Shown: positions 3,644-49,433 of the stretch, piece by piece | Layout of the letters: the number at the start of each line of letters is the position of its first letter | Position numbering within the stretch: the stretch's first letter is position 1 | DNA from: Moraxella sp. FZFQ2102 | GTDB lineage: Bacteria > Pseudomonadota > Gammaproteobacteria > Pseudomonadales > Moraxellaceae | DNA length: 64,000 bases | Direction: 5' to 3' | NCBI RefSeq assembly: GCF_024137865.1 | Contig: NZ_CP099960.1 | Location: 372,001 to 436,000 of the forward strand | Translations under genes and position numbers: made by a program | Notes under the pieces: generated by a model | The model's input: only the letters and a program-made list of their open reading frames with translations | Told to the model about the DNA's origin: nothing | The model's database searches: none

Positions 3644-3672
3644 GTCCTGTGCGTGCTTTATATAAAAATAAT

Positions 3673-4386
3673 GGGGCTGTACTAGATTAGCAATAATGCT
3701 ATACTAGTTTTATGAAGATAACCCGTTGTAAATTAAGTAAAAAAGTTCAAGTTAAACTGCTTGAATTTTTTGTGCTTGAAGTCACCGCAAGATCAGCTGC
3801 TGATTTGTTAGAGATACATCATAATTCAGCTGCTTTGTTTTATCATAAAATTCGCTTGGTGATTGAATATCGCTTAAACCTTGAAGCTTGTGAATTATTT
3901 GACGGTGAAGTAGAATTGGATGAAAGCTATTTCGGTGGCATTCGTAAAGGCAAGCGTGGGCGTGCTGCTGCTGGCAAAGTTGCCGTATTTGGTCTTTTAA
4001 AACGCAATGGTAAGGTTTATACTGCCTGTGTTAAAGATACCAAAGCTAAGACATTAATGCCTATTATTGCCAGTAAAATCAAACCTGATAGCGTGGTTTA
4101 TACAGATAGCTATCGAAGTTATAATGCTTTAGATGTGAGTGATTTTAAACACTTTAGAATTAATCATTCCAAAGAATTTGCAAACAATCATAATCATATT
4201 AACGGCATTGAAAACTTTTGGTCGCAATCCAAACGCATTCTAAGAAAATATAACGGTATTGACAAAAAGCATTTTCATTTATTTATCAAAGAATGCGAGT
4301 TTAGATTTAACTATGGCACACCATCCAATCAATTAAGATTGTTAAGAAAATGGTGTGGGGTTTAGGGATTTATCTAGTACAGCCCC
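3673..4386 (+). mobile_element. Complete IS1595-family insertion sequence (IS1016-like), 714 bp
   Basis: The element is bounded by perfect 15-bp terminal inverted repeats, GGGGCTGTACTAGAT at 3673-3687 and its complement at 4372-4386. It is flanked by an exact 8-bp direct repeat AAAATAAT (3665-3672 and 4387-4394). An 8-bp target duplication is characteristic of the IS1595 family. It carries one intact transposase gene. Intact ends, intact gene and an undecayed duplication suggest recent insertion into the AT-rich gap between ndk and the acetate-uptake genes. Confidence 0.95.
3712..4365 (+). CDS. IS1595-family (IS1016 group) transposase
   Basis: A 217-residue ISXO2-like DDE transposase that catalyses transposition of the surrounding element. 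Visible catalytic blocks are VELDESYFGG (first Asp, residue ~69), VYTDSYRSY (second Asp, ~136) and INGIENFWSQSKR, the conserved third-residue region of the ISXO2/IS1595 domain. An N-terminal segment of about 60 residues forms the DNA-binding part. The frame is uninterrupted and its codon use is more AT-rich than the flanking housekeeping genes, as expected for an imported element. The start codon is 39 bp inside the left end. Confidence 0.92.
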   Translation: MKITRCKLSKKVQVKLLEFFVLEVTARSAADLLEIHHNSAALFYHKIRLVIEYRLNLEACELFDGEVELDESYFGGIRKGKRGRAAAGKVAVFGLLKRNGKVYTACVKDTKAKTLMPIIASKIKPDSVVYTDSYRSYNALDVSDFKHFRINHSKEFANNHNHINGIENFWSQSKRILRKYNGIDKKHFHLFIKECEFRFNYGTPSNQLRLLRKWCGV

Positions 4387-36168: not shown

Positions 36169-36657
36169 CTACCCTTGCGCCACCACCGAATGATACGCGC
36201 GATCACAATAAGCCAAGCCCTTTGCTGTACCATCACCTGACTTAACGGCAATGATTTTACAGATAAAAATACTGTGCGTGCCGACGGTTTTGATCTCGTC
36301 AATCTGACAATCAAAGCTCACCAAGCTATCGCACAAAACTGGCGAACCTGTGGCAAGCATCGTCCACCCTGCCTTGGCAAATCGCTCATCGGCAGTCAAA
36401 GGCGATGCAAACACACCCGATAAATCCGCTTGGCGCTCGCTCAAAGTATTGACGCACAGCACCTGATTTTCGACAAAATGCTCATACGAGCGCGCATTGC
36501 CGTTCATGCACACAAGCAAAGTCGGCGGCGTATCGGTAACACTGCACACCGCCGATGCGGTAAAACCATGCCGACCCGATTTGCCATCGGTGGTGACGAT
36601 ATGTACAGCGCTGACAAGCTTGGACATCGCATTTCTAAATTCTGTATTTGTAATCAT
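36169..36657 (-). CDS. Flavin reductase (HpaC/RutF-like)
   Basis: A ~162-residue NAD(P)H:flavin oxidoreductase of the small flavin-reductase domain family. Diagnostic stretches are FRNAMSKLVSAVHIVTTDGKSGRHGFTASAVCSVTDTPPTLLVCMN near the N-terminus, and CVNTLSERQADLSGVFA and HSIFICKII later. The ATG at 36657 is chosen because the family starts near TEFRNAMS. These enzymes supply reduced FMN or FAD to a partner oxygenase. Lying 87 bp downstream of mesD on the same strand, it may deliver reduced flavin to the oxygen-dependent MesD/MesX methionine synthase; this link is inferred from position. Confidence 0.88.
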   Translation of the reverse strand: MITNTEFRNAMSKLVSAVHIVTTDGKSGRHGFTASAVCSVTDTPPTLLVCMNGNARSYEHFVENQVLCVNTLSERQADLSGVFASPLTADERFAKAGWTMLATGSPVLCDSLVSFDCQIDEIKTVGTHSIFICKIIAVKSGDGTAKGLAYCDRAYHSVVAQG

Positions 36658-36744
36658 TGCTTCACTTATATTTATAAAAAATTTGAGCAAAAGTCAGGAT
36701 TACTCCCAACTTTTGCTATTTGATTGAATTATTCTGCAAATCGC

Positions 36745-37773
36745 TTAAGACAGTTCAGCACGCACCAGTGCCGCCCCTGCTGCGAGTGCTTCAAGCTTGC
36801 CGCGAGCCACAGAGCGAGATAGAGGCGCCATGCCGCAGTTGGTGCAAGGATACAGCTTGTCCGCATCGACAAATTGCAAAGCTTTACGCAAAGTATCCGC
36901 CACCGCTTCAGGCGTCTCTATCGCATTGGTCGCCACATCGATCGCACCCACCATGACTTTTTTACCACGCAACAGCTCAATCAAATCCATCGGCACGCGC
37001 GAATTTTGACACTCAAGCGAGACGATGTCAATGTTTGATTGCTGAAGCTTCGGGAAGCTTTCTTCGTACTGTCGCCATTCACTGCCCAGCGTTTTTTTCC
37101 AGTCGTTATTCGCTTCAATACCATAGCCATAGCAGATGTGTACGGCGGTTTCACACTTCAGCCCTTCGATGGCACGCTCAAGTGCTGCTACGCCCCAATC
37201 ATTTAATTCATCAAAAAATACATTAAAAGCTGGCTCATCAAACTGGATAATATCCACGCCACAAGCTTCCAGTTCTTTGGCTTCTTCGTTAAGAATTTTT
37301 GCAAATTCCCATGCCAATTTCTCACGGCTTTTATAATGCGCATCATACAAAGTATCAATCATGGTCATCGGCCCTGGCAATGCCCATTTGATCGGCTTAT
37401 CAGTATGCTGACGCAAAAATTTGGCATCATCGACGAATACCGACTTTGGACGAGACACCGCACCGACAACTGTCGGCACGCTGGCATCATAGCGGTTGCG
37501 GATACGCACGGTTTCTCGCTGATTAAAATCCACACCGTCTAGATGCTCGATGAATGTCGTCACAAAATGCTGGCGTGTCTGCTCGCCATCGCTGACGATA
37601 TCAATGCCTGCACTGATTTGCTCTTGGAGTGATACCAATAGTGCATCTTGCTTGGCCTCACGCAGTGCATCGCCCGACAGTTTCCACGGCGACCACAGTT
37701 TTTCAGGCTCGGCAAGCCATACAGGTTTTGGCAAGCTGCCTGCGGTTGATGTTGGTAATAATAGTTTGCTCAT
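36745..37773 (-). CDS. mesD: Folate-independent methionine synthase MesD (core-MetE family)
   Basis: A 342-residue protein equal to only the C-terminal catalytic half of MetE. The zinc ligands are readable: His212 and Cys214 (AVHICYG), Glu254 (VSLECQNS) and Cys313 (CTNCGM). GAIDVATNAIETPE is the downstream MetE-like block. It lacks the N-terminal folate-binding barrel, so it cannot be an ordinary MetE. Price and colleagues described MesD as an oxygen-requiring core-MetE that needs MesX (DUF1852); here the DUF1852 gene lies 57 bp upstream on the same strand, which makes the assignment strong. The methyl donor of MesD is not settled. Confidence 0.9.
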   Translation of the reverse strand: MSKLLLPTSTAGSLPKPVWLAEPEKLWSPWKLSGDALREAKQDALLVSLQEQISAGIDIVSDGEQTRQHFVTTFIEHLDGVDFNQRETVRIRNRYDASVPTVVGAVSRPKSVFVDDAKFLRQHTDKPIKWALPGPMTMIDTLYDAHYKSREKLAWEFAKILNEEAKELEACGVDIIQFDEPAFNVFFDELNDWGVAALERAIEGLKCETAVHICYGYGIEANNDWKKTLGSEWRQYEESFPKLQQSNIDIVSLECQNSRVPMDLIELLRGKKVMVGAIDVATNAIETPEAVADTLRKALQFVDADKLYPCTNCGMAPLSRSVARGKLEALAAGAALVRAELS

Positions 37774-37830
37774 GATATATTGCCTTTATAAATTTGTTTA
37801 ATTTCAAATACTTAATCTAATATACCACAA

Positions 37831-38793
37831 TCACTGAACGAATTTTGCCAAAATATCTGCATAAGGCTTGATGAAATGCTCTTGGGTATACTCACCTTGC
37901 TTAATGGCAAGTTCGGTACGCTCAACGCGGTCATATTCTACTTTTGTTAAAGAATAATCTTCGTAAGTCAAGCTTGGTGTATAGACTTCACCCGCCACCG
38001 AATTGGCATTATAAATCTCAGGGCGATAGATTTTTTGGAATGCTTCCATCGTTGCGATGGTGCTGATCAATTCAAGATTGCTATAATCATTTAATAGATC
38101 ACCTGCATGATAAAATGCAAATGGCGCGACAGATTTTGGTGGCATAAAATAACGAACCTTTAAGCCCATCTTATCAAAATATTCGTCGGTCAATGAATCA
38201 GCTTCTTGCTGATATTCCACGCCCAAAATCGGATGTACATTGGTTGTGCGATGATAAGTCTTAGTGGTTGAGACACTTAGGCAAATCACTGGGGCTTTTT
38301 TAAATTTCGCTGTATAAGCATCTGATGTTAAGATTTGTTTAAAAAGCTCGCCATGCAGTACGCCATAATCATCTGGCACGCTAAAAGTCGGTTTGTCTTG
38401 ATTATACTCACGCAGTAGCACGCTAAAATCATAATCGCGCACATAAGATGAGAAGCTATTACCGACGATACCATCTGTTTTTTGGCCAGTTTTGTGGTCG
38501 ATGATATAGGTTTTTAGCATCTCAATCGCTGGAAAAAACTCACCATCACCGATGACATCAATATCTGCTGAGACGATCTCAAGCTCAACGCTATAACGGT
38601 TGGCGGTCGGATTATCCCAATTTGCCAAATCATTGAATCGCTTATCGATCATGCGTATGACATTTTGTAGATTTTCTTTACGATTATCACCACGCGCAAG
38701 GTTGGCAAAGTTGGTGGTCAAGCGCGTACTTTGGGCAGGGATATAATTTTCGTCAAATTTTAGCGTTTTGACTTGGCAGCTTAATGTGGTCAT
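37831..38793 (-). CDS. mesX: MesX (DUF1852), partner of MesD
   Basis: A ~320-residue DUF1852 protein starting MTTLSCQVKTLKFDENYIPAQSTRLTTNFANLARG, which is the recognised family N-terminus. The ATG at 38793 has AGGTG at 5-bp spacing; the frame continues upstream without conservation. MesX is required for the activity of MesD in Acinetobacter baylyi according to published genetics, and its own reaction is unknown. It is the first gene of a three-gene minus-strand set mesX-mesD-flavin reductase. Confidence 0.88.
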   Translation of the reverse strand: MTTLSCQVKTLKFDENYIPAQSTRLTTNFANLARGDNRKENLQNVIRMIDKRFNDLANWDNPTANRYSVELEIVSADIDVIGDGEFFPAIEMLKTYIIDHKTGQKTDGIVGNSFSSYVRDYDFSVLLREYNQDKPTFSVPDDYGVLHGELFKQILTSDAYTAKFKKAPVICLSVSTTKTYHRTTNVHPILGVEYQQEADSLTDEYFDKMGLKVRYFMPPKSVAPFAFYHAGDLLNDYSNLELISTIATMEAFQKIYRPEIYNANSVAGEVYTPSLTYEDYSLTKVEYDRVERTELAIKQGEYTQEHFIKPYADILAKFVQ

Positions 38794-39026
38794 ATTGCAC
38801 CTATTTTCATTGTGAATTTGGATGAATTTCGAACAGGACATATTAAACCGCATTTTTAACATGAATACAATTGATATATTTTTGAAAAAAGATGAATATT
38901 TTTCAATTTATAACGCCACACTACTATTTTCAATACATTTGGCGCGGTAAAATTACTTGAGAAACAGTGAATTTAAGTTATAATAAGCGTTTTTACATAA
39001 CCAGCTCTGATTATTTAGCCTAATTT

Positions 39027-39719
39027 ATGACCCAATCCAACCGCGCCGCCTTTATCCAAGGCTGTCAAGCCGCTCTCCCTATTGCCTTAGGTTATATCCC
39101 TGTGGCGATTGCTTTTGGTATGGCGACGACAGCAGCAGGGTTTCCGACTTGGGTGATTGTGGCGATGAGCCTGTTTATTTATGCTGGGGCTAGCCAGTTT
39201 CTGCTGTTTGCATCCATCATGAGCGGTGCGAGTGTGACGGCAGTGGTCGGACTGTGCGCCCTGCTCGACTCTCGGCATCTACTGTATGCACCACTGATGA
39301 AACGCCATCTCAAATCCAGTGATGGTATGATTTGGATTGCACCACTGATTACCGATGAAGTCTTTGCAACCGCGATGGCAAAGCTAAAAGACATCGACCG
39401 CCAAAAGCCATGGCTAATTGGACTTGCTATCGTCTCTTGGGTCTCATGGTGGGGTGGGACGATTGTCGGGATTTTTGGTGGTAAGCTGCTTGCTAATTAT
39501 CCGACGATGAGCGCGACGATGAATTTTGCATTTGTTGCACTGTTTGTTTCATTATCGACGCACGCTTTTATCAGTGAGCCACGCTTTCGCATTGCGCTGA
39601 TTGTGTCTGCAATTGTGGCGGTGATTTGTACACAGTTTGGACATGGTGAAATTGCGCTGTTGGTGGCGGGATTTGCAGGGGTGTTGGTGCAGTTGATAAT
39701 TAGCAGGTTTATTCGATAA
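39027..39719 (+). CDS. azlC: Branched-chain amino acid exporter large subunit AzlC
   Basis: A 230-residue inner-membrane protein with about seven hydrophobic segments. The AzlC signature GCQAALPIALGYIPVAIAFGMATTAAGFP and YAGASQFLLFASIMSGAS are clear, as is LCALLDSRHLLYAPLM. With AzlD it exports branched-chain amino acids (or analogues). Its stop codon overlaps the azlD start by one base (TAATG). Confidence 0.92.
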   Translation: MTQSNRAAFIQGCQAALPIALGYIPVAIAFGMATTAAGFPTWVIVAMSLFIYAGASQFLLFASIMSGASVTAVVGLCALLDSRHLLYAPLMKRHLKSSDGMIWIAPLITDEVFATAMAKLKDIDRQKPWLIGLAIVSWVSWWGGTIVGIFGGKLLANYPTMSATMNFAFVALFVSLSTHAFISEPRFRIALIVSAIVAVICTQFGHGEIALLVAGFAGVLVQLIISRFIR

Positions 39720-40078
39720 TGTTTAGTAATGCTAACTTTTCCACTTTAGTGATTTCGGTTGCAGCAATGGCGATTTTGACTGCTTTGTCTCGCGCTTTGC
39801 CATTTTTATTATCGGACAACTCACCGATCATTCGCTTTTTTACTGCTGAAAATTCACCACTTGCACCATTAGGTGGTGCGATTATCGTGGCGATGACGAT
39901 GGTGCTTGCTTTGCCATTTTTTAGTGCGCCAACTGAGCATAACCCCCTCATTGCAAGCGTCTTTGGTATCATCACCACCATCATTGCCACCATGCGTAAG
40001 ATCAATACCGGCATGAGCGTAATCATCGGCATGGTGGGATTTTTGATCGGTGTAATGGTGGATAAGGTGATTTTATAA
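39719..40078 (+). CDS. azlD: Branched-chain amino acid exporter small subunit AzlD
   Basis: A 119-residue membrane protein with four hydrophobic segments, the AzlD size. The motif TALSRALPFLLSDNSP near the N-terminus and PLGGAIIVAMTMVLALPFF are family-typical. It starts on the last base of azlC, so the two are coupled. A terminator follows at 40114. Confidence 0.9.
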   Translation: MFSNANFSTLVISVAAMAILTALSRALPFLLSDNSPIIRFFTAENSPLAPLGGAIIVAMTMVLALPFFSAPTEHNPLIASVFGIITTIIATMRKINTGMSVIIGMVGFLIGVMVDKVIL

Positions 40079-40139: not shown

Positions 40140-40160
40140 ATTGTAAAATTTTCTAAACGA

Positions 40161-40883
40161 TTAAACTTGTTCACCCTTCTTAAAAAACACCCACGCAAGC
40201 CCTGCCGACATCGCCCACGCAAGCATCATCGACACCACCGAATGGCTCAAAAAATGATCGCCAATCATCATCTTATAGCAGCCCATCACCCAGCCCAATG
40301 CCATCACCGCGATGGTGATCGCACCACGACGGCGGCGCAAACTTGGCACAAAAGCAAAGGCAAACAGCGCAAATCCGCTACTGGCATGCGCCGCAGGAAA
40401 GCACTTATCAGGAATAGTGTTACGCATACTATCAAGCATCGGCAAATACGGCAGCGTGCCATCAAAAATTGTCAAATGCACAGGGCAGACCACATGAGTA
40501 TAAGCCTTCAATGACGCGACAACTGTCGGCACTAGAATCAAAGTCAGCACCAGATACACAAGCTCACGCACGCGAAATTTTGCCACTGGGACAAGCCACT
40601 TGGCAGTGATGGCATTGCCCTTTTTCTCATGATAAGCGCGGTAAATGGTCGCAACCAGCAAGTAAATCAGCATCGCCATCAGTAGCTTTTTTAGTCCAGA
40701 ATACAGCAGTAAATCGGGCAAAAAAGCTTGCTTGGCAACCATCCAATGCCCCATACCCAGATAGAACCAATCAGCGACCATCAGATCAATCTGACTATGT
40801 TCAAGGGTCAGCGCAGCAACGATCGCCATGACAAGAGCGATGCTCATCTCGACAAGCAGGCGTTTATTTGATAAATACGGCAT
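40161..40883 (-). CDS. pap2: PAP2-family membrane phosphatase linked to the mcr-1-like gene
   Basis: A ~240-residue inner-membrane protein with about six hydrophobic segments. The phosphatase core is seen in DKCFPAAHASSGFALFAFAF (equivalent of the PSGH motif) and MMIGDHFLSHSVVSMMLAW (the catalytic His block). It belongs to the type-2 phosphatidic acid phosphatase superfamily that acts on undecaprenyl or lipid phosphates. In mobile mcr-1 cassettes a pap2 gene follows mcr-1 directly; the same order is seen here, 69 bp after the mcr stop. The start at 40883 (ATG, GGGG upstream) is preferred over a GTG at 40895. Whether it contributes to resistance is not established. Confidence 0.9.
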   Translation of the reverse strand: MPYLSNKRLLVEMSIALVMAIVAALTLEHSQIDLMVADWFYLGMGHWMVAKQAFLPDLLLYSGLKKLLMAMLIYLLVATIYRAYHEKKGNAITAKWLVPVAKFRVRELVYLVLTLILVPTVVASLKAYTHVVCPVHLTIFDGTLPYLPMLDSMRNTIPDKCFPAAHASSGFALFAFAFVPSLRRRRGAITIAVMALGWVMGCYKMMIGDHFLSHSVVSMMLAWAMSAGLAWVFFKKGEQV

Positions 40884-40952
40884 AACAAACCCCACCCCAC
40901 CGCCCTTAATACGAATGATTGTGCGGTGGGTTTGGAAAAATAAAGGGAGAAA

Positions 40953-42575
40953 TCAGCGGATGAATGCGGTGCGGTCTTTGACTTTATCCGCGGTAACATC
41001 GAACAGCTTTAATAATGTCGGTGTAATCGCATCATGTGTCAGTGCGGTGTCACTGGCAGTTGGCGTGAACGATGAATTATTTGACCAAAAGAATGCCGGT
41101 ACCGCTCGTTGTTCTTTTGGTGCAAAGGCATTAGGCATACCATGCAGATAGACACCGTTCTCACCCAGACTTTCGCCATGATCGCTGACATACAGCATCG
41201 AGACATCATAGGCATTGCTGTGCGTCTGCAGCCACTGGATACTTTGAGCGATAAAATCATCGGTCGCAAGTAGTGCATTATCATAGGCGTTGATGAGCGA
41301 TTGATGTTCGCACTTGGCAAGCTCATTACCTTCACACACTGGCGTGAATTTGGCAAACTTTTCATCATATCGCTTAAAATACGCAGGCCCGTGATTGCCC
41401 ATTTGGTGCAGCATGATCAGCATATCTTTGCCAGTATTGGCAGCGACAAAGTCATCTAAGCCAACGAGCATACCGACATCGCGGCATTCGTTATAAGGAT
41501 TGGTGTTGCAGATGGTGTTGTTGGTCGCGGATTTATAATCGGCAAATTGCGCTTTTGGCAGCTTATCCATCACGCCTTTTGAGTCTGAATTATTATCACG
41601 CCACAAGATGCTCACGCCCAAGCGATCCAGCGTATCAAGCACATTTTCTTGGTACTTGGCGGTATCGACATCGTACTCATCCGCGCCTAAATAGCTGAAC
41701 ATACACGGCACAGAGTATGCCGTCGATGTGCCACACGATGTCACTTGGCTAAAATTGGTCACGCCATCGATCTTGGCAAGCTGCGGGAAAGTATCGCGCT
41801 CATAGCCATTGAAGCTGACATGATCGGCGCGTGCCGTCTCACCGACGACGAACACCACTAGGCGTGGCTTACGCATATCAGGCTTGGTTGCTTGTACCGC
41901 GTCTTTGGCGTGATAAATGGTATCTTTTGGCGCACTGGCTTTTTTATACTCAATACTGGCAAGCTTACCCACCGAGTAGATTGGCATGATCGGATTGACA
42001 TAGCTACGCAGCGGCTTATGCACGCGAAAGAAACTGGCATAATGACTGCTGAACGCCACCACAGGCAGTAAAATCAGCGCAAGACTTGCCACGATCAAGC
42101 CCAATCGGCGCATCAAACCCTTGCCCCAAGTCGGATAATCCACCTTGACAAAAGCCACAAGCAAACTTGGTAACACGCCCAAGCCAATGATACGCATGAT
42201 AAACGCTGCGTTTAATAGATCCTTGGTCTCGGCTTGGTCGGTCTGTAGGGCATTTTGGAGCATGGTCGTGTCATAGACCGTGCCATAAGTGTCAGTAAAA
42301 TAACTGGTCACCGCGCCCATGATTAATAGCAAAATCAACACAGGCTTTAGCACATAGCGATACGATGATAACAGCGTGGTGATCAGTAGCATCGCGCCAA
42401 AGAGCACGACAGCGATCGTCAGCACAAAGCCGAGATTGTCCGCGATGGGATAGGTTTGGCTGATTTTATCAAAAAAGGTAAGATTGGCGGTCGCGGTCAA
42501 GAAAACGGCAACACTTGCCACAAGAACAAACGGACTGACCGAGCGTCGGTACCACACAGAAGTATGCTGCACCAT
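40953..42575 (-). CDS. mcr-1: MCR-1-family lipid A phosphoethanolamine transferase (chromosomal)
   Basis: 540 residues. It transfers phosphoethanolamine from phosphatidylethanolamine to lipid A at the periplasmic side of the inner membrane, lowering the affinity for colistin. The first ~180 residues hold five membrane helices and the rest is a sulfatase-fold domain. Zinc and catalytic residues are at the MCR-1 positions: Glu246 (VVGETARADH), Thr285 (SCGTSTAYS), His390 and His395 (MLHQMGNHGP), Asp465-His466 (VSDHGES), His478. The six Cys of the three disulfides (281, 291, 356, 364, 414, 422) are all present. Against MCR-1 recalled from memory, it differs at few sites (residues 2, 277, 354, 381, 491) plus a cluster at 498-511 that includes one deletion. 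The cassette-typical pap2 follows. No ISApl1 or other IS is adjacent. It resembles chromosomal mcr-1 variants reported from pig Moraxella. Confidence 0.96.
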   Translation of the reverse strand: MVQHTSVWYRRSVSPFVLVASVAVFLTATANLTFFDKISQTYPIADNLGFVLTIAVVLFGAMLLITTLLSSYRYVLKPVLILLLIMGAVTSYFTDTYGTVYDTTMLQNALQTDQAETKDLLNAAFIMRIIGLGVLPSLLVAFVKVDYPTWGKGLMRRLGLIVASLALILLPVVAFSSHYASFFRVHKPLRSYVNPIMPIYSVGKLASIEYKKASAPKDTIYHAKDAVQATKPDMRKPRLVVFVVGETARADHVSFNGYERDTFPQLAKIDGVTNFSQVTSCGTSTAYSVPCMFSYLGADEYDVDTAKYQENVLDTLDRLGVSILWRDNNSDSKGVMDKLPKAQFADYKSATNNTICNTNPYNECRDVGMLVGLDDFVAANTGKDMLIMLHQMGNHGPAYFKRYDEKFAKFTPVCEGNELAKCEHQSLINAYDNALLATDDFIAQSIQWLQTHSNAYDVSMLYVSDHGESLGENGVYLHGMPNAFAPKEQRAVPAFFWSNNSSFTPTASDTALTHDAITPTLLKLFDVTADKVKDRTAFIR

Positions 42576-42616
42576 GAGAAACTACTCAAAAAATAAACGG
42601 TGGGATAATTGCGGCA

Positions 42617-42645
42617 ATTATACTGCAATTTTTTAAGAAATCCAG
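42617..42645 (-). promoter_or_regulatory. Promoter of the mcr-1-like gene
   Basis: On the minus strand a perfect -10 TATAAT (42617-42622) follows CTGGAT (42640-42645) at 17 bp, 42 bp before the ATG. In mobile mcr-1 I recall the -35 as TTGGAT, one base different. No operator or PmrA-like box was recognised. Confidence 0.7.
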
Positions 42646-42810
42646 TACAATTTATCTGATATACAAAATTATGCGATACAGAAATATTTCAGAAATTTTA
42701 TTAGCAGTCATTGCACAATCCCATACTGGATATACACTTGAGAGTATTTATAATTTGTATATAAAATTGATAATTATTCGCACTATTCCGATAGATTGAC
42801 AAGCTGACAT
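42646..42810. other. Upstream part of the mcr-1 control region
   Basis: AT-rich gene-free sequence. Together with the promoter and the gcr terminator it makes the ~300-bp gap between the mcr-1-like gene and the Gcr-family gene. No IS remnant, terminal repeat or target duplication was seen here. Confidence 0.5.
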
Positions 42811-42883: not shown

Positions 42884-45163
42884 TTATTTAGGCAGCTTTG
42901 GTTTGACATCAGGTTTTGGTAATGAATTTGGCGTGCAATCATCGCTGCTCTGACCATCGATCAGCGGTACGCCATTTTCGCCACACACAGGTTCAAAGGT
43001 TGCTTCGATGATGTCATTTTTGATCTCTTGGGCGTCTTTTGGCTTAAAGTGCAGACGACGCACGATGGCATCAGAGAAAAACTGCGTTTCTTTGTCTTTG
43101 ACTTCATCGAAAATGATCTCACCATCGCTGTTGATTTTGGCGTATTTGACCGTTTCTTTGCGCGGCCAAAAAAAGTCAAGCGGATGCTTTACAAAATGGC
43201 TAAATACCATGCTGTTAAGCTTTTTCCATTCAAAAAAGCGCACGCCTTTTGAACGCAGTGCCACCATCAAGGCAAGCGAGAAGCTCACCATCAAGTTCAC
43301 CATACCAATCAGCAGCACACCGATGAACGACAGCGTAATCACTTGCCAAGTCAGATCCTGCGGCGCAAGATGATAAATGCCGTGAATGAAGTTCGCCGAT
43401 GCAAAGGCAATGTGGCGAATATCCAGCGGCAAGCCAAGCATATAGCCGACGGTCGCGGTACTACCAAGGAAACAACCAAAAATAAAGTTCCCCATGATCG
43501 CACCTAGGTTTGCTTCGACGAAATCGCCAAGCTTGTTCTGCCAAGAGCTTGACATCACTGACTGTAGCCACGGATGGCGTTTAATGCGCTCGCCGATTTT
43601 ATTGTACGCCGCCAAGTTATCATAATAACCTGAAATCAAGCCTGAAACAAACAAGAACACACCTGCAATGGCTGCGTGCGGCAAGGACAGTGAGCGAATC
43701 GGATCAAGGTCATGCAATAGATGAGCTGCCATCTTGCCATCGATCATCGGCGCACCATGCAGATACTGCCAAGTCCACGCGATCACGAACGCCACCGGCA
43801 TCGCCACCGAGATATTACCCATGATTGCCACGAACTGCGTACGCAAAATATCGACGATCAGCTCAGCAAGCTTCGTCAGTTGTTGGGATTTTTTGCCCGA
43901 GCCTTCTGAGATAGTGGACGCGATCGCAGCTGCTGTCATCGCAGGCTGCTTGGTTGCGACCGTGCCTTTGGCGATATGAATAAACACAAAGCCCAAGCCA
44001 TAGATCATGCTGTTCATGAATGCCTTGCCGATCGGCGCAAGCACCAAGTACGAGCCAAGCACCTTCAATGTCGCCATAAAGCCGATGAACAGACCACCGA
44101 TGGCGGCTTTTTTTGACATTTTCATAAAGCCTGCGCGGTCGGTACTGATGTAGTTCTCACCGACGCGACTGGCGTTCTCAGTCACTTTACGCGACAGAAG
44201 CTTGGTGTTACTTTCGATCAATGAGCTAAAGCGATAGCGCGTGTTCGCCGTGCGCACCACTTGGGTCATCAGCTCAATCACCGCCTTATCACGGTTTTTG
44301 TCTTTATCCGTCACAAGACTCACCAGCACCTGCATACGGTGCAAGCTCTGCTCAAGACGCACAAGCAAATTGGTCATGCGAATCGAGATACCTGTCTTGT
44401 ACACGCGTTTACGCACGCGGGTGACGATGTCTTGGCACTGCTCAACCATCACCAATAATGGCGCAGGATCGATGTCCACTTCAGGCATGACATCGGTCAT
44501 CTCATCGAGATGGTGCGACTGGCGATACTGATTGACGAACAGTGTCGCTTCTTGGTTCTGCGCCACGAACGCTGCTGAGTGATTGAGCAGTTCTGGATAA
44601 AATTCCATCAGCTCAGGATGCAGACCCATGCCACTGATGCGATAAGATAAGATGACGATAGCGTTTAGAATGTTGTTCTTGATCTGCGCGACCAAGTTTA
44701 GATCATGCTTACCCACCTGCACCAGATCCACCAGCCGATCCCATTTTTCAGCATCGATATTAGCAATCCAGCGGTAGTCATTTTTATGATCAAACAGATC
44801 ATTGGCAAGCTCCACCACCAGCTCTTCGTTGGGCAATAATGGCAAAAAACGATGTCCGACAAGCTTATTGACACTACCAAAAAAAGTCTCATCAGACGCG
44901 ATGCCCGCATCGGTATATAGTGGAATTTGGCGATATTGCGTAATCAAGCGCAGCATGAAAGCCGCCAAGCCCTGACCGTATTCAGGGTTGGCTTGTAATA
45001 ATTCGATCAACTCATCAAACTTGGCATTGGCAGCATCGACATCATCGGCATCGACACGCAGTGCATCAACCAAGCGCTTTAGTGATGCAGGCTCGGGTAG
45101 TTCTTGTAGTTTGACGATGTATTGTAAAATATGTTCTAAATCGTGATTATGCGATAGCGTCAC
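42884..45163 (-). CDS. Polytopic membrane protein of the 'site-specific recombinase' (Gcr, PF10136) family
   Basis: About 759 residues. The N-terminal ~350 residues are helical and soluble-looking. From ~380 onward there are at least six strong hydrophobic segments (AAIGGLFIGFMATLKVLGSY, ISVAMPVAFVIAWTW, IAGVFLFVSGLISGYY, ANLGAIMGNFIFGCFLGSTA, VITLSFIGVLLIGMVNLMVS), then a charged cytoplasmic tail ending in KPDVKPKLPK. It resembles the family annotated site-specific recombinase after the gonococcal Gcr, but no recombinase catalytic motif is visible. The GTG at 45163 with GGAG six bases upstream is chosen; the open frame extends to a TTG at 45268. It lies upstream of the mcr-1-like gene on the same strand and has its own terminator. 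Confidence 0.75.
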   Translation of the reverse strand: MTLSHNHDLEHILQYIVKLQELPEPASLKRLVDALRVDADDVDAANAKFDELIELLQANPEYGQGLAAFMLRLITQYRQIPLYTDAGIASDETFFGSVNKLVGHRFLPLLPNEELVVELANDLFDHKNDYRWIANIDAEKWDRLVDLVQVGKHDLNLVAQIKNNILNAIVILSYRISGMGLHPELMEFYPELLNHSAAFVAQNQEATLFVNQYRQSHHLDEMTDVMPEVDIDPAPLLVMVEQCQDIVTRVRKRVYKTGISIRMTNLLVRLEQSLHRMQVLVSLVTDKDKNRDKAVIELMTQVVRTANTRYRFSSLIESNTKLLSRKVTENASRVGENYISTDRAGFMKMSKKAAIGGLFIGFMATLKVLGSYLVLAPIGKAFMNSMIYGLGFVFIHIAKGTVATKQPAMTAAAIASTISEGSGKKSQQLTKLAELIVDILRTQFVAIMGNISVAMPVAFVIAWTWQYLHGAPMIDGKMAAHLLHDLDPIRSLSLPHAAIAGVFLFVSGLISGYYDNLAAYNKIGERIKRHPWLQSVMSSSWQNKLGDFVEANLGAIMGNFIFGCFLGSTATVGYMLGLPLDIRHIAFASANFIHGIYHLAPQDLTWQVITLSFIGVLLIGMVNLMVSFSLALMVALRSKGVRFFEWKKLNSMVFSHFVKHPLDFFWPRKETVKYAKINSDGEIIFDEVKDKETQFFSDAIVRRLHFKPKDAQEIKNDIIEATFEPVCGENGVPLIDGQSSDDCTPNSLPKPDVKPKLPK

Positions 45164-45682
45164 AAAGTACTCCACTTGTTGGCGGTATCGTACCGCTCTG
45201 TACAAAATTTGTACAATTTTTCTCAATCTTTGGTAGGACACTCTAACACACTTGGGCAATTTTGCCAAATTTCAGAGCAGGATTTACCACAGAATTTTGT
45301 ATCGAAATCTTTTGCTTTTTGCATTTTTATGATAAATGTTATGCAGGGATTTTAAAGTAAAAATGCTTGGGAATTACATATACTTGTAGGTTATTTAAGT
45401 TTGAATTGATAAAAAATTTAAAATACCTATAGGGCGTGCCGCACGCACCCTCAAAATACCTAATGCGTCAAATCTCCAAAAGATTTTTGCAAAAATTTAT
45501 TATAAAAATCAAATCGTTATAATAAATTGGTGCGGATACCGCACCCTACGCATTAGGTTTTTAATCAAAATGCGTGTTGATGAGATGGGTTTATACAATA
45601 TCAATGAACAATACCCATGACAAACCTACTACCCAAAAAAAAGCTTGGCGATCACTCACCAAGCTTTTTTCACAGCGATAAT
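45164..45682. other. Gene-free region with palindromic repeats
   Basis: About 520 bp without a credible gene. It contains the palindromic repeats at 45431-45556 and the upstream region of the Gcr-family gene. A short AAGCTT-type stem (AAAAAGCTTGG / CCAAGCTTTTTT, 45639-45668) near the right edge serves as terminator of the acyl-CoA dehydrogenase at 45683. Confidence 0.55.
45431..45556. repeat. Pair of intergenic palindromes flanked by an 11-bp inverted repeat
   Basis: AGGGCGTGC...GCACGCACCCT near 45431 and GGTGCGGATACCGCACC at 45529-45545 lie within 130 bp. Next to them ACCTAATGCGT (about 45458-45468) and its exact complement ACGCATTAGGT (45548-45558) form an inverted pair. The arrangement looks like a small non-coding mobile or REP-type unit. 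Confidence 0.5.
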
Positions 45683-47458
45683 TTACGCAAAAAACCCAGC
45701 ATCAAACGCCATGATACTGCTTGATCCTGCCGCTGCCATCTTGGCGTGTGCATCTAAGCTTGGCAGACTGCGCGCGACGAAATAGTCGGCAAGTTTGCGT
45801 TTATTTTCATAAAACTCACCTGCCTTACCTTCGCACGCGTTGATGATCAACAGATACATATAGCCATAGCACAGATAGCCAACCGCGTGCAGATAATCGA
45901 CCGCGCTTGCGTTGATGGCATTGGCATCGTCTTTGCTGGCAGCGATCAGCTTGGCGGTCAGTTCGCGCACGGTTTGCACCGATGATTTGACACTTGCCAC
46001 GATGGAGTGCGATGAAGCACTTGCACCAGCCGCAGCATCAATCTCATCTAAGAATGCCGACATCGCCACGCCGCCATCTTTAACGACCTTACGACCCAAC
46101 AAATCCAGCGATTGAATGCCGTTCGTGCCTTCATAGATCTGTGAGATACGCGTATCGCGGACGATCTGCTCCATGCCCCATTCTTTGATATAGCCGTGTC
46201 CGCCGAATACCTGCTGACAGTCGATCGCTGCGGCGAATGATTTGTCAGTGACGAATGCTTTGACAATCGGCGTCAGTAGCGCGACTTTGGCATTGGCTGC
46301 TTTTGCTGCGGCGGTATCATCGCTGTATTTAGCGGTGTCGAGATTTTGTGCCACATACATCGCAAAGGTACGCGCCGCGACGCTGTTGGTCTTAGCATTC
46401 AAGAGCATACGGCGTACATCAGCAAAATGAATGATCGGATCGGCCGCTTTATCTGCATTGACGACACCGGTATCAGCACGACCTTGTAGGCGATCTTGGG
46501 CATAGCGCGCGGCATTTTGGTAAGCCAGTACACTTGCGCCAAGCCCTTGTAAGCCCATGGTCACGCGCTCATAGTTCATCATCACAAACATCGCAGCAAG
46601 GCCTGTATTCTCCGCACCGACCAGATAGCCTTTTGCACCGTCAAAATTCATCACGCAAGTGGCTGATGCTTTGATGCCCATCTTATGCTCGATGCTGCCT
46701 GCTTGCACGGCGTTGCGCTCGCCTAGGCTACCATCATCATTGACCATGAATTTTGGCACGATAAACAGCGAAATGCCCTTTGAGCCAGCTGGCGCGTCAG
46801 GCGTCTTAGCAAGCACCAAGTGAATGATATTTTCTGCCAAATCATGCTCGCCGCCGGTGATAAAAATCTTCGTACCCGTGATGGCATAGCTACCGTCATC
46901 ATTCGGTAGAGCGCGCGTCTTGATGATTCCAAGATCCGTGCCTGCGTGCGCTTCGGTCAAGCACATCGTCCCTGCCCATTGCCCTGCGTACATTTTCTCA
47001 AGGTATTTGGTTTTTTGTTCATCGCTAGCAGCAGCCAGTAAGCAGATACTGGCACCGACGGTGAGATTTGGATACAAGGCAAAAGATTGGTTGGTGGCAA
47101 AAAGCATCTCTTCGGTCAGCATCGTGACCATCTTTGGCATGCCTTGACCGCCGAAATTTGGATCACCGCCAAGTCCGATCCAGCCCGCTTCGGCATACTG
47201 CGCGAATGCTTGTCTGAAGCCTGCTGGCGTTGCCACTTTGCCATCGCCTAGGTATTTTGCCCCTTCTTCATCGCCCGATTGATTGATCGGCAGCAGCACT
47301 TCACTGGCAAATTTCGCCATCTCATCTAGAATCATATCGACCGTTTCTTCATCGACATGGCTGAGCTTTTCGTTATTTTGCCAAAATTTCGGCGCATCAA
47401 ACACTTCTTTTAGTGTAAAACGCATTTCATCCAAGGGAGCGGTATAGGTCAATGACAT
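45683..47458 (-). CDS. Acyl-CoA dehydrogenase (DmdC/long C-terminal type), copy 1
   Basis: A 591-residue FAD enzyme of fatty-acid or related acyl-CoA oxidation. The N-terminal helix domain (SLTYTAPLDEMRFTLKEVFD) is the type found in the ~600-residue acyl-CoA dehydrogenases; the flavin/substrate region shows GTMCLTEAHAGTDLGIIKTRA and ITGTKIFITGGEHDLAENI; the C-terminal half carries CQQVFGGHGYIKEWGMEQIVRDTRISQIYEGTNGIQSLDLLGRK. The start at 47458 has AAGGAA at 7 bp. It lies 142 bp downstream of a second gene of the same family, suggesting duplication with different chain-length preference. The substrate is unknown. Confidence 0.9.
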   Translation of the reverse strand: MSLTYTAPLDEMRFTLKEVFDAPKFWQNNEKLSHVDEETVDMILDEMAKFASEVLLPINQSGDEEGAKYLGDGKVATPAGFRQAFAQYAEAGWIGLGGDPNFGGQGMPKMVTMLTEEMLFATNQSFALYPNLTVGASICLLAAASDEQKTKYLEKMYAGQWAGTMCLTEAHAGTDLGIIKTRALPNDDGSYAITGTKIFITGGEHDLAENIIHLVLAKTPDAPAGSKGISLFIVPKFMVNDDGSLGERNAVQAGSIEHKMGIKASATCVMNFDGAKGYLVGAENTGLAAMFVMMNYERVTMGLQGLGASVLAYQNAARYAQDRLQGRADTGVVNADKAADPIIHFADVRRMLLNAKTNSVAARTFAMYVAQNLDTAKYSDDTAAAKAANAKVALLTPIVKAFVTDKSFAAAIDCQQVFGGHGYIKEWGMEQIVRDTRISQIYEGTNGIQSLDLLGRKVVKDGGVAMSAFLDEIDAAAGASASSHSIVASVKSSVQTVRELTAKLIAASKDDANAINASAVDYLHAVGYLCYGYMYLLIINACEGKAGEFYENKRKLADYFVARSLPSLDAHAKMAAAGSSSIMAFDAGFFA

Positions 47459-47600
47459 GATAATTTCCTTATAGTCGGTTTTTAAGTAATTCAAAATAAC
47501 AGCATGATTGCACCATTTAAAACAAAGCTAGAGATTAAGCCGCAGATGATATAAATCCAAGAAACGATCTATTGCTTCAAATGACACAATCATAGTAATT

Positions 47601-49433
47601 TTAATACACAAATTGCTCAATATCCATCGCCATCAAGGTCTCTTCGCCGCTGTTGATGCGTGCGACATGGACGGCGGTGCGTGGTAAGAGCTTGGTGAAA
47701 TAAAACTGCGCGGTCTTGATCTTGGCATCATAAAATCCATAATCACCGTGCAATGATTTATCACTGTCAAGATCTGCATCATACTCATCAAGCTTCACTT
47801 GCGCGACGACCGCCATGCGCGCCCACAGATAAGCAAGGGTCACATAGCCTGAGAAATACAGATAATCGACTGCGGCAGCACCGAGGGCGTCTGGGTTTTG
47901 TGTGCCTTGTAAGCCGATGCGTGCGGTGATGTCGCCCCACTGTTTATTCAGCTTGGCAAGTGGGCGGATGAATTGACCAAGTGCGTCATTTTCTTCATGT
48001 TCTTTACAGAATTTATGAATGATCTTGGTGAAATTGGCAAGCATACGCCCTTGCGAACCCATCACTTTACGACCCAACAAATCCAGCGACTGAATCTCTG
48101 TCGTGCCTTCGTACAAGCAAGCGATGCGCGTATCGCGGACATTTTGCTCCATGCCCCATTCGCTGATAAAGCCGTGACCGCCATAGACTTGCACACCGTG
48201 GTTCGCTGATTCAAAGCCTGTCTCGGTCAAGAACGCTTTAGCAATCGGTGTCAATAACGACAGCATATCATCGGCAAATTTCACATCCACACCATCGACG
48301 CCTGCGCCCTTATGCACGATGTCGGCATATTGTGACAGATAATACACCAGCGCGCGCCCACCTTCGGCAAAGGCTTTGGTGGTCAAAATCATATTGCGCA
48401 CCGCAGGATGGTGGATGATACGGTCAGCGGCTTTGTCTTTGTCTTTCACACCCGAAATGGCGCGCATCGCGGTACGGTCTTTGGCATAAGTGATTGCCCC
48501 TTGGAAAGCAAACTGCGCCGCCGTCAAGCCCTGAATCGCCGTGCCAATACGCGCGACATTCATAAAGGTAAACATACAGTTTAGACCGCGGTTTTCAGGG
48601 CCGATCAGATAACCTGTCGCACCGTCGAAATTCATCACACAAGTTGCTGATGCTTTGATACCCATCTTATGCTCGATCGAGCCACAAGTCACGCCATTGC
48701 GCGCACCGATTGAGCCATCGGCATTGACCAAGAATTTCGGCACGATAAATAGCGAAATACCCTTAGTGCCAGCTGGTGCGTCAGGTAGGCGTGCTAGCAC
48801 GATGTGGATGATGTTTTCGGTCAAATCATGCTCGCCTGCTGAGATGAAGATTTTTTGTCCTGTGATGGCATAGCTGCCGTCATCATTCGGCATGGCGCGT
48901 GTCTTGATGATGCCAAGATCTGAGCCTGCGTGCGCTTCAGTCAGACACATCGTACCCGACCACAGACCTGTGTTCAGCTTTTCTAGATAAGTGGCTTTTT
49001 GTTCATCAGTACCGTGGTGTTCGATGGTGGCGATCGCCCCGTGTGACAGCCCTGGGTACATAGAGAATGACCAGTTTGCCGTACCCATCATTTCGCTGAC
49101 CGCACTTGATAAAGTGGTTGGCAAGCCCATGCCGCCGTATTCAGGCTCGGCGGTCAAGGCAGGAAAGCCCAATTCACAGTAGCTTTCATACGCTTGTTTA
49201 AAGCCTGTCGGCGTATAGACATTACCATCTTCGAAGCGGCAGCCTTCGATGTCACCCGTACGATTCAATGGCGATAGCACGCTTTGGGCAAAATCCGCCG
49301 CCGCTTCTAAGTAACTATTAACCGTCTCGGTATCCAGTTCAGCGTAGGCAGGTAGGCGCGCGTAGTGGCTTTGGCTGTCTAGTAGCTCGTGCATGACGAA
49401 TTGAATGTCGCGAAGTGGGGCTGTGTATTGCAT
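47601..49433 (-). CDS. Acyl-CoA dehydrogenase (DmdC/long C-terminal type), copy 2
   Basis: A 610-residue paralogue of the gene at 45683-47458, with the same blocks: QYTAPLRDIQFVMHELLDS at the N-terminus, GTMCLTEAHAGSDLGIIKTRAMPNDDGSYAITGQKIFISAGEHDL, and GVQVYGGHGFISEWGMEQNVRDTRIACLYEGTTEIQSLDLLGRK. The two proteins clearly align over their whole length but differ strongly at the C-terminus. It precedes copy 1 on the minus strand. No thiolase, hydratase or fad regulator is adjacent. Confidence 0.9.
   Translation of the reverse strand: MQYTAPLRDIQFVMHELLDSQSHYARLPAYAELDTETVNSYLEAAADFAQSVLSPLNRTGDIEGCRFEDGNVYTPTGFKQAYESYCELGFPALTAEPEYGGMGLPTTLSSAVSEMMGTANWSFSMYPGLSHGAIATIEHHGTDEQKATYLEKLNTGLWSGTMCLTEAHAGSDLGIIKTRAMPNDDGSYAITGQKIFISAGEHDLTENIIHIVLARLPDAPAGTKGISLFIVPKFLVNADGSIGARNGVTCGSIEHKMGIKASATCVMNFDGATGYLIGPENRGLNCMFTFMNVARIGTAIQGLTAAQFAFQGAITYAKDRTAMRAISGVKDKDKAADRIIHHPAVRNMILTTKAFAEGGRALVYYLSQYADIVHKGAGVDGVDVKFADDMLSLLTPIAKAFLTETGFESANHGVQVYGGHGFISEWGMEQNVRDTRIACLYEGTTEIQSLDLLGRKVMGSQGRMLANFTKIIHKFCKEHEENDALGQFIRPLAKLNKQWGDITARIGLQGTQNPDALGAAAVDYLYFSGYVTLAYLWARMAVVAQVKLDEYDADLDSDKSLHGDYGFYDAKIKTAQFYFTKLLPRTAVHVARINSGEETLMAMDIEQFVY

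What the first reader, a model, noticed from the sequence alone, without database searches (positions are those of the whole stretch)
40953..42575. Chromosomal mcr-1-like colistin-resistance gene in a native Moraxella context
The 540-residue product carries every catalytic, zinc-binding and disulfide residue at the numbered MCR-1 positions (Glu246, Thr285, His390, His395, Asp465, His466, His478; Cys 281/291/356/364/414/422). By memory it differs from MCR-1 at only a handful of sites outside one C-terminal cluster. It sits among ordinary genes with its own promoter and with pap2 following, and there is no transposon. This looks like a member of the donor lineage from which mobile mcr-1 was captured.
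Basis: partly seen in the sequence, partly recalled or inferred. Interest (0 to 1): 0.95.

Follow-up and report, generated by a model that had tools for sequence, protein, structure and literature searches.

The report
Published chromosomal mcr-1 allele in Moraxella
[quoted passage not shown] what is added is that it looks patchwork when set against the mobile gene and that the same chromosome carries relatives of the insertion sequences that spread mcr-1 and mcr-2.

Summary
Window 40953-42575 (minus strand) encodes a 540-aa MCR-1-family enzyme, 526/541 (97.23%) identical to MCR-1.1; all 15 catalytic, metal and cysteine positions checked are kept. pap2 follows. Homology to Tn6330 covers the whole cassette and ends at the same AT and CG (2603 bp here, 2609 bp in the transposon). 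No ISApl1 flanks it, and a second Moraxella shares the gene order.

It is not new. The genome length (2,336,058 bp) equals that of Moraxella sp. FZFQ2102, whose mcr-1.35 was published in 2023 with the same identities (97.23% aa, 95.33% nt) and raised the polymyxin B MIC 4-fold in E. coli (PMC10228737).

Added here: (1) difference from mcr-1.1 is uneven, 1.0% in codons 1-240 and 13.9% in codons 421-541, which suggests recombination; in the C-terminal cluster MCR-1.1 is the odd one out. (2) The chromosome holds 13 copies of an ISEc69-like element (98% in transposase), one at window 3666-4386, and four ISApl1 copies. (3) Among 22 genus genomes a close mcr is in 2 and pap2 in 1.

The parts
40953..42575 (-). 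mcr-1.35: MCR-1-family phosphoethanolamine-lipid A transferase, 540 aa
   Evidence: NCBIfam MCR-1 1262 bits, cut-off 1100; 526/541 to MCR-1.1, 15 of 15 checked residues kept
40161..40895 (-). pap2, PAP2-family protein, probably a lipid A phosphatase (244 aa as listed, GTG start)
   Evidence: NF028536 520 bits (cut-off 475) and NF028538 PAP2 family lipid A phosphatase 324 bits (cut-off 275)
40158..42760 (-). Resident counterpart of the Tn6330 cassette, AT to CG inclusive, 2603 bp (2609 bp in the transposon)
   Evidence: Edges; lengths; borders as described in PMC5821093 (passages)
40953..41315 (-). 3' part of mcr (codons 421-541, MCR-1.1 numbering) with high divergence from mcr-1.1
   Evidence: 51/366 differences against 7/720 in codons 1-240; synonymous 28/120 against 18/420 codons
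41043..41105 (-). C-terminal cluster of 11 differences from MCR-1.1, where this protein agrees with MCR-6 and MCR-2
   Evidence: Residues 488-515: 2/27 from MCR-6, 3/27 from MCR-2, 11/28 from MCR-1.1; alignment
42884..45268 (-). ssr, SpecificRecomb (PF10136) family protein, upstream neighbour
   Evidence: Pfam 741 bits; in 19 of 22 genus genomes; next to mcr also in G020 apart from one inserted gene
39719..40078 (+). azlD, downstream neighbour
   Evidence: PF05437; same place in G020
39027..39719 (+). azlC
   Evidence: PF03591; 90% in G020
36169..38862 (-). Flavin-reductase-like gene, metE-type gene and MesX gene: continued shared gene order
   Evidence: Shared with G020; PF08908 and PF01717; the first name is by resemblance only
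45683..49433 (-). Two acyl-CoA-dehydrogenase-like genes upstream of ssr (name by resemblance; not run against a family library)
   Evidence: Same order in G020, G021 and G003
3666..4386 (+). ISEc69-like insertion sequence (IS1595 family) with an open 217-aa transposase at 3712-4365
   Evidence: 96.9% over 721 bp to the ISEc69 copy beside mcr-2.1 in NZ_CP122626; transposase 212/217

Best explanation
This is the resident chromosomal mcr-1-pap2 locus of Moraxella sp. FZFQ2102, the published allele mcr-1.35. The product is an inner-membrane enzyme with a periplasmic zinc-dependent catalytic domain. It moves phosphoethanolamine onto lipid A through a phospho-Thr285 intermediate and so lowers binding of polymyxins (mechanism from established knowledge of MCR-1 and EptA; resistance shown in the 2023 paper; conservation of the machinery shown here). 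The locus was inherited with its neighbours from at least the common ancestor with an MCR-2-carrying Moraxella (inferred from shared gene order and even divergence). It belongs to the lineage of which one copy was captured by ISApl1 as Tn6330 (inferred, as published for MSG13-C03). Since the split from mcr-1.1, recombination between Moraxella lineages has most likely replaced the 3' part of the gene in one of the two (inferred).
For: Genome length 2,336,058 bp in one contig equals FZFQ2102 in Table 1 of PMC10228737; 97.23% aa and 95.33% nt to mcr-1.1 computed here equal the published values, and the residue changes agree. 8 of 9 resistance-type proteins taken elsewhere in the genome fit the published list. 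Cassette borders AT and CG. Same genes on both sides in G020; mcr 79.6% in DNA between G000 and G020, eight neighbours 77.9-88.8%. GC and GC3 of mcr (0.489, 0.555) lie within the range of the locus. No plasmid or E. coli record matches the allele itself at 99% or more; best listed 95.5%. Mosaic.
Against: CP099960 was not held, so identity with FZFQ2102 rests on length, identity values and residues. One resistance-type protein (AadA family) is not in the published list. A close homologue is in only 2 of 22 genus genomes, and no clean empty site was found. For the mosaic: trees of residues 1-240, 241-420 and 421-541 all join this protein with MCR-1.1 (0.998, 1.000, 0.852), so no conflict of branching is shown; the claim rests on the jump in divergence.
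Confidence: 0.93

Rival explanations
1. The gene came back into Moraxella from an Enterobacterales plasmid (Tn6330) and later lost its ISApl1 copies.
For: The genome is multiresistant and carries four ISApl1 copies elsewhere; the cassette ends exactly where Tn6330 does.
Against: Best identity to any plasmid or E. coli record listed is 95.5%, far too low for a recent return. At the C-terminal cluster this protein agrees with MCR-2 and MCR-6, and at residue 354 it has Thr as MCR-2 of L051 does, not the Ala of MCR-1.1. Homology stops at the cassette edge only because the plasmid continues into ISApl1; the Moraxella gene order continues.
Confidence: 0.03
2. The uneven divergence is not recombination but fast change under selection in the 3' part of mcr-1.1.
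For: The C-terminal cluster is rich in amino-acid changes (10 of 27 comparable codons in 488-515), and the trees show no conflict of branching.
Against: Synonymous differences rise too (18/420 to 28/120 codons, p = 3e-9), while both genes keep an even synonymous distance to the MCR-2 gene of L051 along their length (p = 0.32 and 0.37).
Confidence: 0.2
3. It is an ordinary EptA-type housekeeping enzyme that merely resembles MCR-1.
For: EptA and MCR share Pfam domains and chemistry; homologues at E <= 1e-60 occur in 139 of 199 family genomes.
Against: The MCR-1 model passes its cut-off and the EptA model (PRK11598) does not; apart from MCR-1, MCR-6 and MCR-2 clusters the best full-length listed relative is 66-67% identical; 16 of 22 genus genomes have no homologue at E <= 0.001.
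Confidence: 0.02

Closest known systems
mcr-1.35 of Moraxella sp. FZFQ2102 (PMC10228737; parts 1-3 of 4 of the text read)
   Same: Genome length, identity values to mcr-1.1, residue changes, pap2 and ssr context
   Different: Nothing found, except that the paper's text omits the change at position 2 and its resistance table has no aadA
mcr-1.36 of Moraxella sp. FZLJ2107 and FZLJ2109 (same paper)
   Same: 98.27% nt to mcr-1.35 and the same C-terminal cluster, by the paper
   Different: Adds changes at residues 23 and 451 by the paper; by its 16S tree these strains lie in another part of the genus. DNA not held
mcr-1.10 of Moraxella sp. MSG13-C03 (PMC5821093 passages; the original AbuOun 2017 paper not held)
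   Same: Chromosomal mcr-1-pap2 with AT and CG borders
   Different: 97.60% nt to mcr-1.1 against 95.33% here; lacks the C-terminal cluster by the published list. DNA not held
Tn6330 (ISApl1-mcr-1-pap2-ISApl1)
   Same: Cassette 2497 of 2620 aligned columns identical over a slightly longer stretch; same ends
   Different: No flanking ISApl1 here; 2603 against 2609 bp
Chromosomal mcr-2 locus of an uncultured Moraxella (L051 = G020)
   Same: Same flanking gene order; its protein is 538/538 identical to the MCR-2 cluster representative P0003
   Different: 83% to the window protein; an alpha/beta-hydrolase gene before mcr, an ion-channel gene after it, and only a 59-bp pap2-like stretch found

Membership tests
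MCR-1 family phosphoethanolamine-lipid A transferase | Passes the curated MCR-1 model and not those of MCR-2 or MCR-6 | tested here: met
   1262 against 1100; MCR-6 1100 against 1235; MCR-2 1075 against 1200
MCR-1 family phosphoethanolamine-lipid A transferase | Catalytic, zinc-site and disulfide residues | tested here: met
   15 of 15 positions identical to MCR-1.1
MCR-1 family phosphoethanolamine-lipid A transferase | Raises polymyxin MIC | not testable with these tools
   Published for mcr-1.35: 0.5 to 2 ug/mL in two E. coli hosts; strain MIC 8 ug/mL (PMC10228737)
Allele mcr-1.35 | Identity values and residue changes of the published allele | tested here: met
   97.23% aa, 95.33% nt and the listed changes; CP099960 itself not fetched
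Tn6330 | ISApl1 on both sides of mcr-1-pap2 | tested here: not met
   No ISApl1 match in the window
Donor lineage of mobile mcr-1 | Chromosomal, whole cassette homologous, ends at the AT and CG target dinucleotides | tested here: met
Donor lineage of mobile mcr-1 | Common inheritance with neighbouring genes | tested here: met
   Gene order shared with G020; mcr diverges like its neighbours; only one such second species was available
Donor lineage of mobile mcr-1 | Closest known relative of mcr-1.1 outside mobile DNA | tested here: inconclusive
   By the published table mcr-1.10 is closer overall; by residue lists this protein is closer in residues 1-240 (1 change against at least 4) and mcr-1.10 in the rest; mcr-1.10 DNA was not held

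The most novel reading that the evidence does not exclude
One pig Moraxella chromosome holds the resident mcr-1-family locus, 13 copies of an element nearly identical to ISEc69 (which mobilised mcr-2) and four copies of ISApl1 (which mobilised mcr-1). With the uneven identity between this gene and mcr-1.1, this suggests that mobile mcr-1 is itself a recombinant made in a mixing population of pig Moraxella, that ISEc69 is a Moraxella element, and that the captures of mcr-1 and mcr-2 both took place inside Moraxella.
Probability: 0.4. Interest if true: 0.5.

Novelty: already known. Interest (0 to 1): 0.3.

Why it matters
It confirms from raw sequence that mobile mcr-1 has a resident chromosomal relative in pig Moraxella, and that the borders of the captured piece hold in a lineage other than MSG13-C03. 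If the mosaic reading is right, the search for one donor strain is misplaced: the donor was a recombining population, and different parts of the gene have different nearest relatives. Near-identical ISEc69 in high copy in a Moraxella would make the place of the mcr-2 capture testable by comparing more pig Moraxella genomes.

Tried and rejected
Tried and rejected: return from a plasmid (identity, residue states and gene order speak against it); plain EptA; the Actinobacillus sp. GY-402 hit as a missing link: its protein is identical to MCR-1.1 (541/541) and sits between ISApl1 copies, so it is an acquired Tn6330. An empty site could not be shown: G021 and G003 keep acd2-acd1-ssr without mcr, and in G021 azlCD lies elsewhere on the same contig. 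The promoter scan was little above chance. P0053, 94% identical over 45% of the query, is an internally shortened MCR-1.1-like protein. Rfam found only the tRNA. The second homologue in the own genome (L002, 26%) lies in a 564-aa ORF and was not pursued. No structure was predicted, because MCR-1 structures exist. One search aligned 30 of the 120 listed proteins and the trees used 13 of the 120. The E-value list is itself capped (8000 candidates scored, 120 shown of 5174).

Full report
What is there. Window 40953-42575 on the minus strand is an open frame of 540 codons. It passes the curated NCBIfam MCR-1 model (1262 bits, cut-off 1100) and fails those of MCR-6 and MCR-2. Against MCR-1.1 from plasmid record NZ_KX528699 it is identical at 526 of 541 protein positions (97.23%) and 1550 of 1626 DNA positions (95.33%). 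The 15 positions checked (E246, T285, K333, H390, H395, D465, H466, E468, H478 and six cysteines) are all the same. Four differences lie outside and eleven inside a cluster at residues 491-512.

It is already published. The genome that holds the window is one contig of 2,336,058 bp. Table 1 of PMC10228737 gives exactly this length for the chromosome of Moraxella sp. FZFQ2102; the study sampled pig nasal swabs in Fujian, China. The paper reports mcr-1.35 there with 97.23% protein and 95.33% DNA identity to mcr-1.1, a position downstream of an 'ssr' gene and upstream of pap2, a strain MIC of 8 ug/mL polymyxin B, and a rise from 0.5 to 2 ug/mL in two E. coli hosts. Its residue list agrees with mine except that its text omits position 2. 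Of nine resistance-type proteins that I picked from four other stretches of the genome, eight fit the published list (tet(H), ROB, tet(M/O)-type, Erm-type, sul2, floR, aac(3)-IV, aph(6)-I) and one, an AadA-family protein, does not. NCBI taxonomy holds the strain name. I read parts 1-3 of 4 of that paper. CP099960 itself I could not fetch, so the match rests on these values.

Native context. The match to mobile mcr-1 covers the cassette: 974 plasmid records match, and the 40 listed all lie within window 40148-42773. The true ends are the AT upstream of mcr and the CG just after the pap2 stop: window 40158-42760, 2603 bp, against 2609 bp in Tn6330. These are the borders that Snesrud and co-workers described for MSG13-C03 (2606 bp there) and proposed as ancestral ISApl1 target duplications (PMC5821093, passages). 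Over window 28000-52900, 992 plasmid records match; 974 are at 80% or above, the same number as, and 18 are at 60-80%. I saw 8 of the 992 rows, one of them a methionine-synthase stretch in Pantoea. ISApl1 has no match in the window.

Gene order. In a second Moraxella (G020, whose contig has the same length and matches as L051, an uncultured Moraxella from a metagenome) the same genes stand on both sides: acd2-acd1-ssr, then mcr, then azlD-azlC-MesX-metE-flavin reductase. mcr is 79.6% identical in DNA between the two, its eight neighbours 77.9-88.8%. So mcr has diverged at the pace of its neighbours, as expected of common descent. GC and third-position GC of mcr lie within the range of the neighbours. 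In G020 an alpha/beta-hydrolase gene precedes mcr, an ion-channel gene follows, and only a 59-bp stretch resembles pap2. Two Moraxella that keep acd2-acd1-ssr (G021, G003) have no mcr homologue, and in G021 azlCD lies elsewhere.

Distribution. Of 22 genus genomes, six have any homologue at E <= 0.001 but only two have one above 80% (G000 and G020). pap2 is in 1 of 22, ssr in 19 of 22. Of 199 family genomes sampled, 139 have a homologue at E <= 1e-60; after G000 and G020 the best are 64-65% identical. So, in this sample, the locus is native to a small branch and not to the genus at large.

A patchwork gene. Against mcr-1.1 the DNA differs at 7 of 720 columns in codons 1-240, 18 of 540 in codons 241-420 and 51 of 366 in codons 421-541; in pap2 it is 32 of 735. 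The longest identical run is 362 nt; the longest in 2000 shuffles was 237. The best split (chi-square 43.0, near window 41301) was reached in 0 of 2000 shuffles. Shuffles ignore uneven rates, so the better control is an outgroup: synonymous codon differences rise from 18/420 to 28/120 between this gene and mcr-1.1 (p = 3e-9), but not between either of them and the MCR-2 gene of L051 (126/418 to 42/120, p = 0.32; 124/418 to 41/120, p = 0.37). I read this as replacement of the 3' part in one of the two lineages.

Which one changed is open. In residues 488-515 this protein is 2/27 from MCR-6 and 3/27 from MCR-2, while MCR-1.1 is 10/28 from MCR-6 and 11/28 from MCR-2 and from this protein; in the tree of residues 421-541 the long branch is that of MCR-1.1. 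So the cluster is more a peculiarity of mobile MCR-1 than of this protein. Against this: that tree still joins the two (support 0.85); in the tree of residues 480-541 MCR-1.1 joins MCR-6 with weak support (0.77); and 24 of the 28 more distant homologues aligned have the longer form of the loop, as MCR-1.1 has.

One consequence: by the six substitutions that the paper lists for MCR-1.10 (four in residues 1-240, two after), this protein is nearer to MCR-1.1 in the first 240 residues (one change) and MCR-1.10 is nearer in the rest. The list may be one short, since the paper's 98.71% would mean seven differences. A search for mcr-1, Moraxella, recombination and mosaic gave 11 papers (listing only); none of the titles or abstract beginnings listed concerns this question, and the main text of PMC10228737 has no occurrence of 'recombination', 'ISApl1' or 'insertion sequence'.

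Insertion sequences in the same chromosome. The window holds, at 3666-4386, an element 96.9% identical over 721 bp to the ISEc69 copies beside mcr-2.1 in plasmid NZ_CP122626, with an open transposase, 212 of 217 residues identical. The genome has 13 copies whose transposase is 98% identical to that of ISEc69; for 11 of them the search counts no internal stop. In the genus, 15 of 22 genomes have a relative at E <= 1e-40. Outside G000 matches over the whole length reach 84%, shorter pieces 86%, and a broken copy in G011 has pieces at 95-96%. Among plasmids, 53 records hold a relative of the window copy, 25 of them from Moraxella (none at 95% or more except the five E. coli records with ISEc69 itself). 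This favours Moraxella as home of the element, but the sample is small.

ISApl1 is present elsewhere in the chromosome in four nearly full-length copies at 95.1-99.1% DNA identity and one 91-bp fragment. Each full-length copy lies within 2 kb of an acquired resistance gene, and none of the four shows the unbroken reference frame. In the other 21 genus genomes the best long match is 60%, with short pieces up to 74%. ISApl1 therefore looks like a newcomer here. A review states that ISApl1 was seen in M. bovoculi and M. porci (PMC9462459, passages), and another cites a 75% relative of the mcr-2 transposase gene in M. bovoculi (PMC10668746, passages). The search for ISEc69 with Moraxella gave five papers, all looked at in passages; no passage shown reports near-identical ISEc69 in a Moraxella chromosome. 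FZFQ2102 is named in one held paper only.

Mechanism. MCR-1-type enzymes take phosphoethanolamine from phosphatidylethanolamine onto Thr285 in a zinc-bound periplasmic domain and pass it to a phosphate of lipid A, which lowers the negative charge that polymyxins bind (established knowledge, recalled). Conservation of these parts is shown here; activity is shown in the paper. PAP2 passes the model 'PAP2 family lipid A phosphatase' (324 bits, cut-off 275), so a joint remodelling of lipid A is likely but not shown.

Verdict. Observation confirmed, interpretation supported, and already known. The mosaic signal and the presence of ISEc69-like and ISApl1 elements in one chromosome with a resident mcr-1 are the points worth following.

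Noticed in passing
window 3666-4386; 13 copies in G000: ISEc69-like insertion sequence, 96.9% in DNA to the element that flanks mcr-2.1 on pig E. coli plasmids, in high copy in this chromosome.
   Followed up: partly
G000:C1 789597-790664, 801598-802661, 1705366-1706399, 1721071-1722140 (in L069-L072): Four nearly full-length ISApl1 copies, each within 2 kb of an acquired resistance gene, none with the unbroken reference frame.
   Followed up: partly
L050:6745-11503 (Actinobacillus sp. GY-402 chromosome): Complete ISApl1-mcr-1-pap2-ISApl1 arrangement in a Pasteurellaceae chromosome; its protein is identical to MCR-1.1.
   Followed up: partly
L051:9617-10193 and L078:4814-6775: The MCR-2 locus of a Moraxella metagenome has only a short pap2-like remnant; the mcr-2.1 cassette of a plasmid matches that locus at 95.5% over 1884 bp.
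   Followed up: partly
P0053 (protein hit, 331 aa): Internally shortened MCR-1.1-like protein in the protein database.
   Followed up: no
L070:2709-3611: AadA-family aminoglycoside nucleotidyltransferase (432 bits, cut-off 375) that is not in the published resistance list of FZFQ2102; its 5' end runs into an ISApl1 copy.
   Followed up: no
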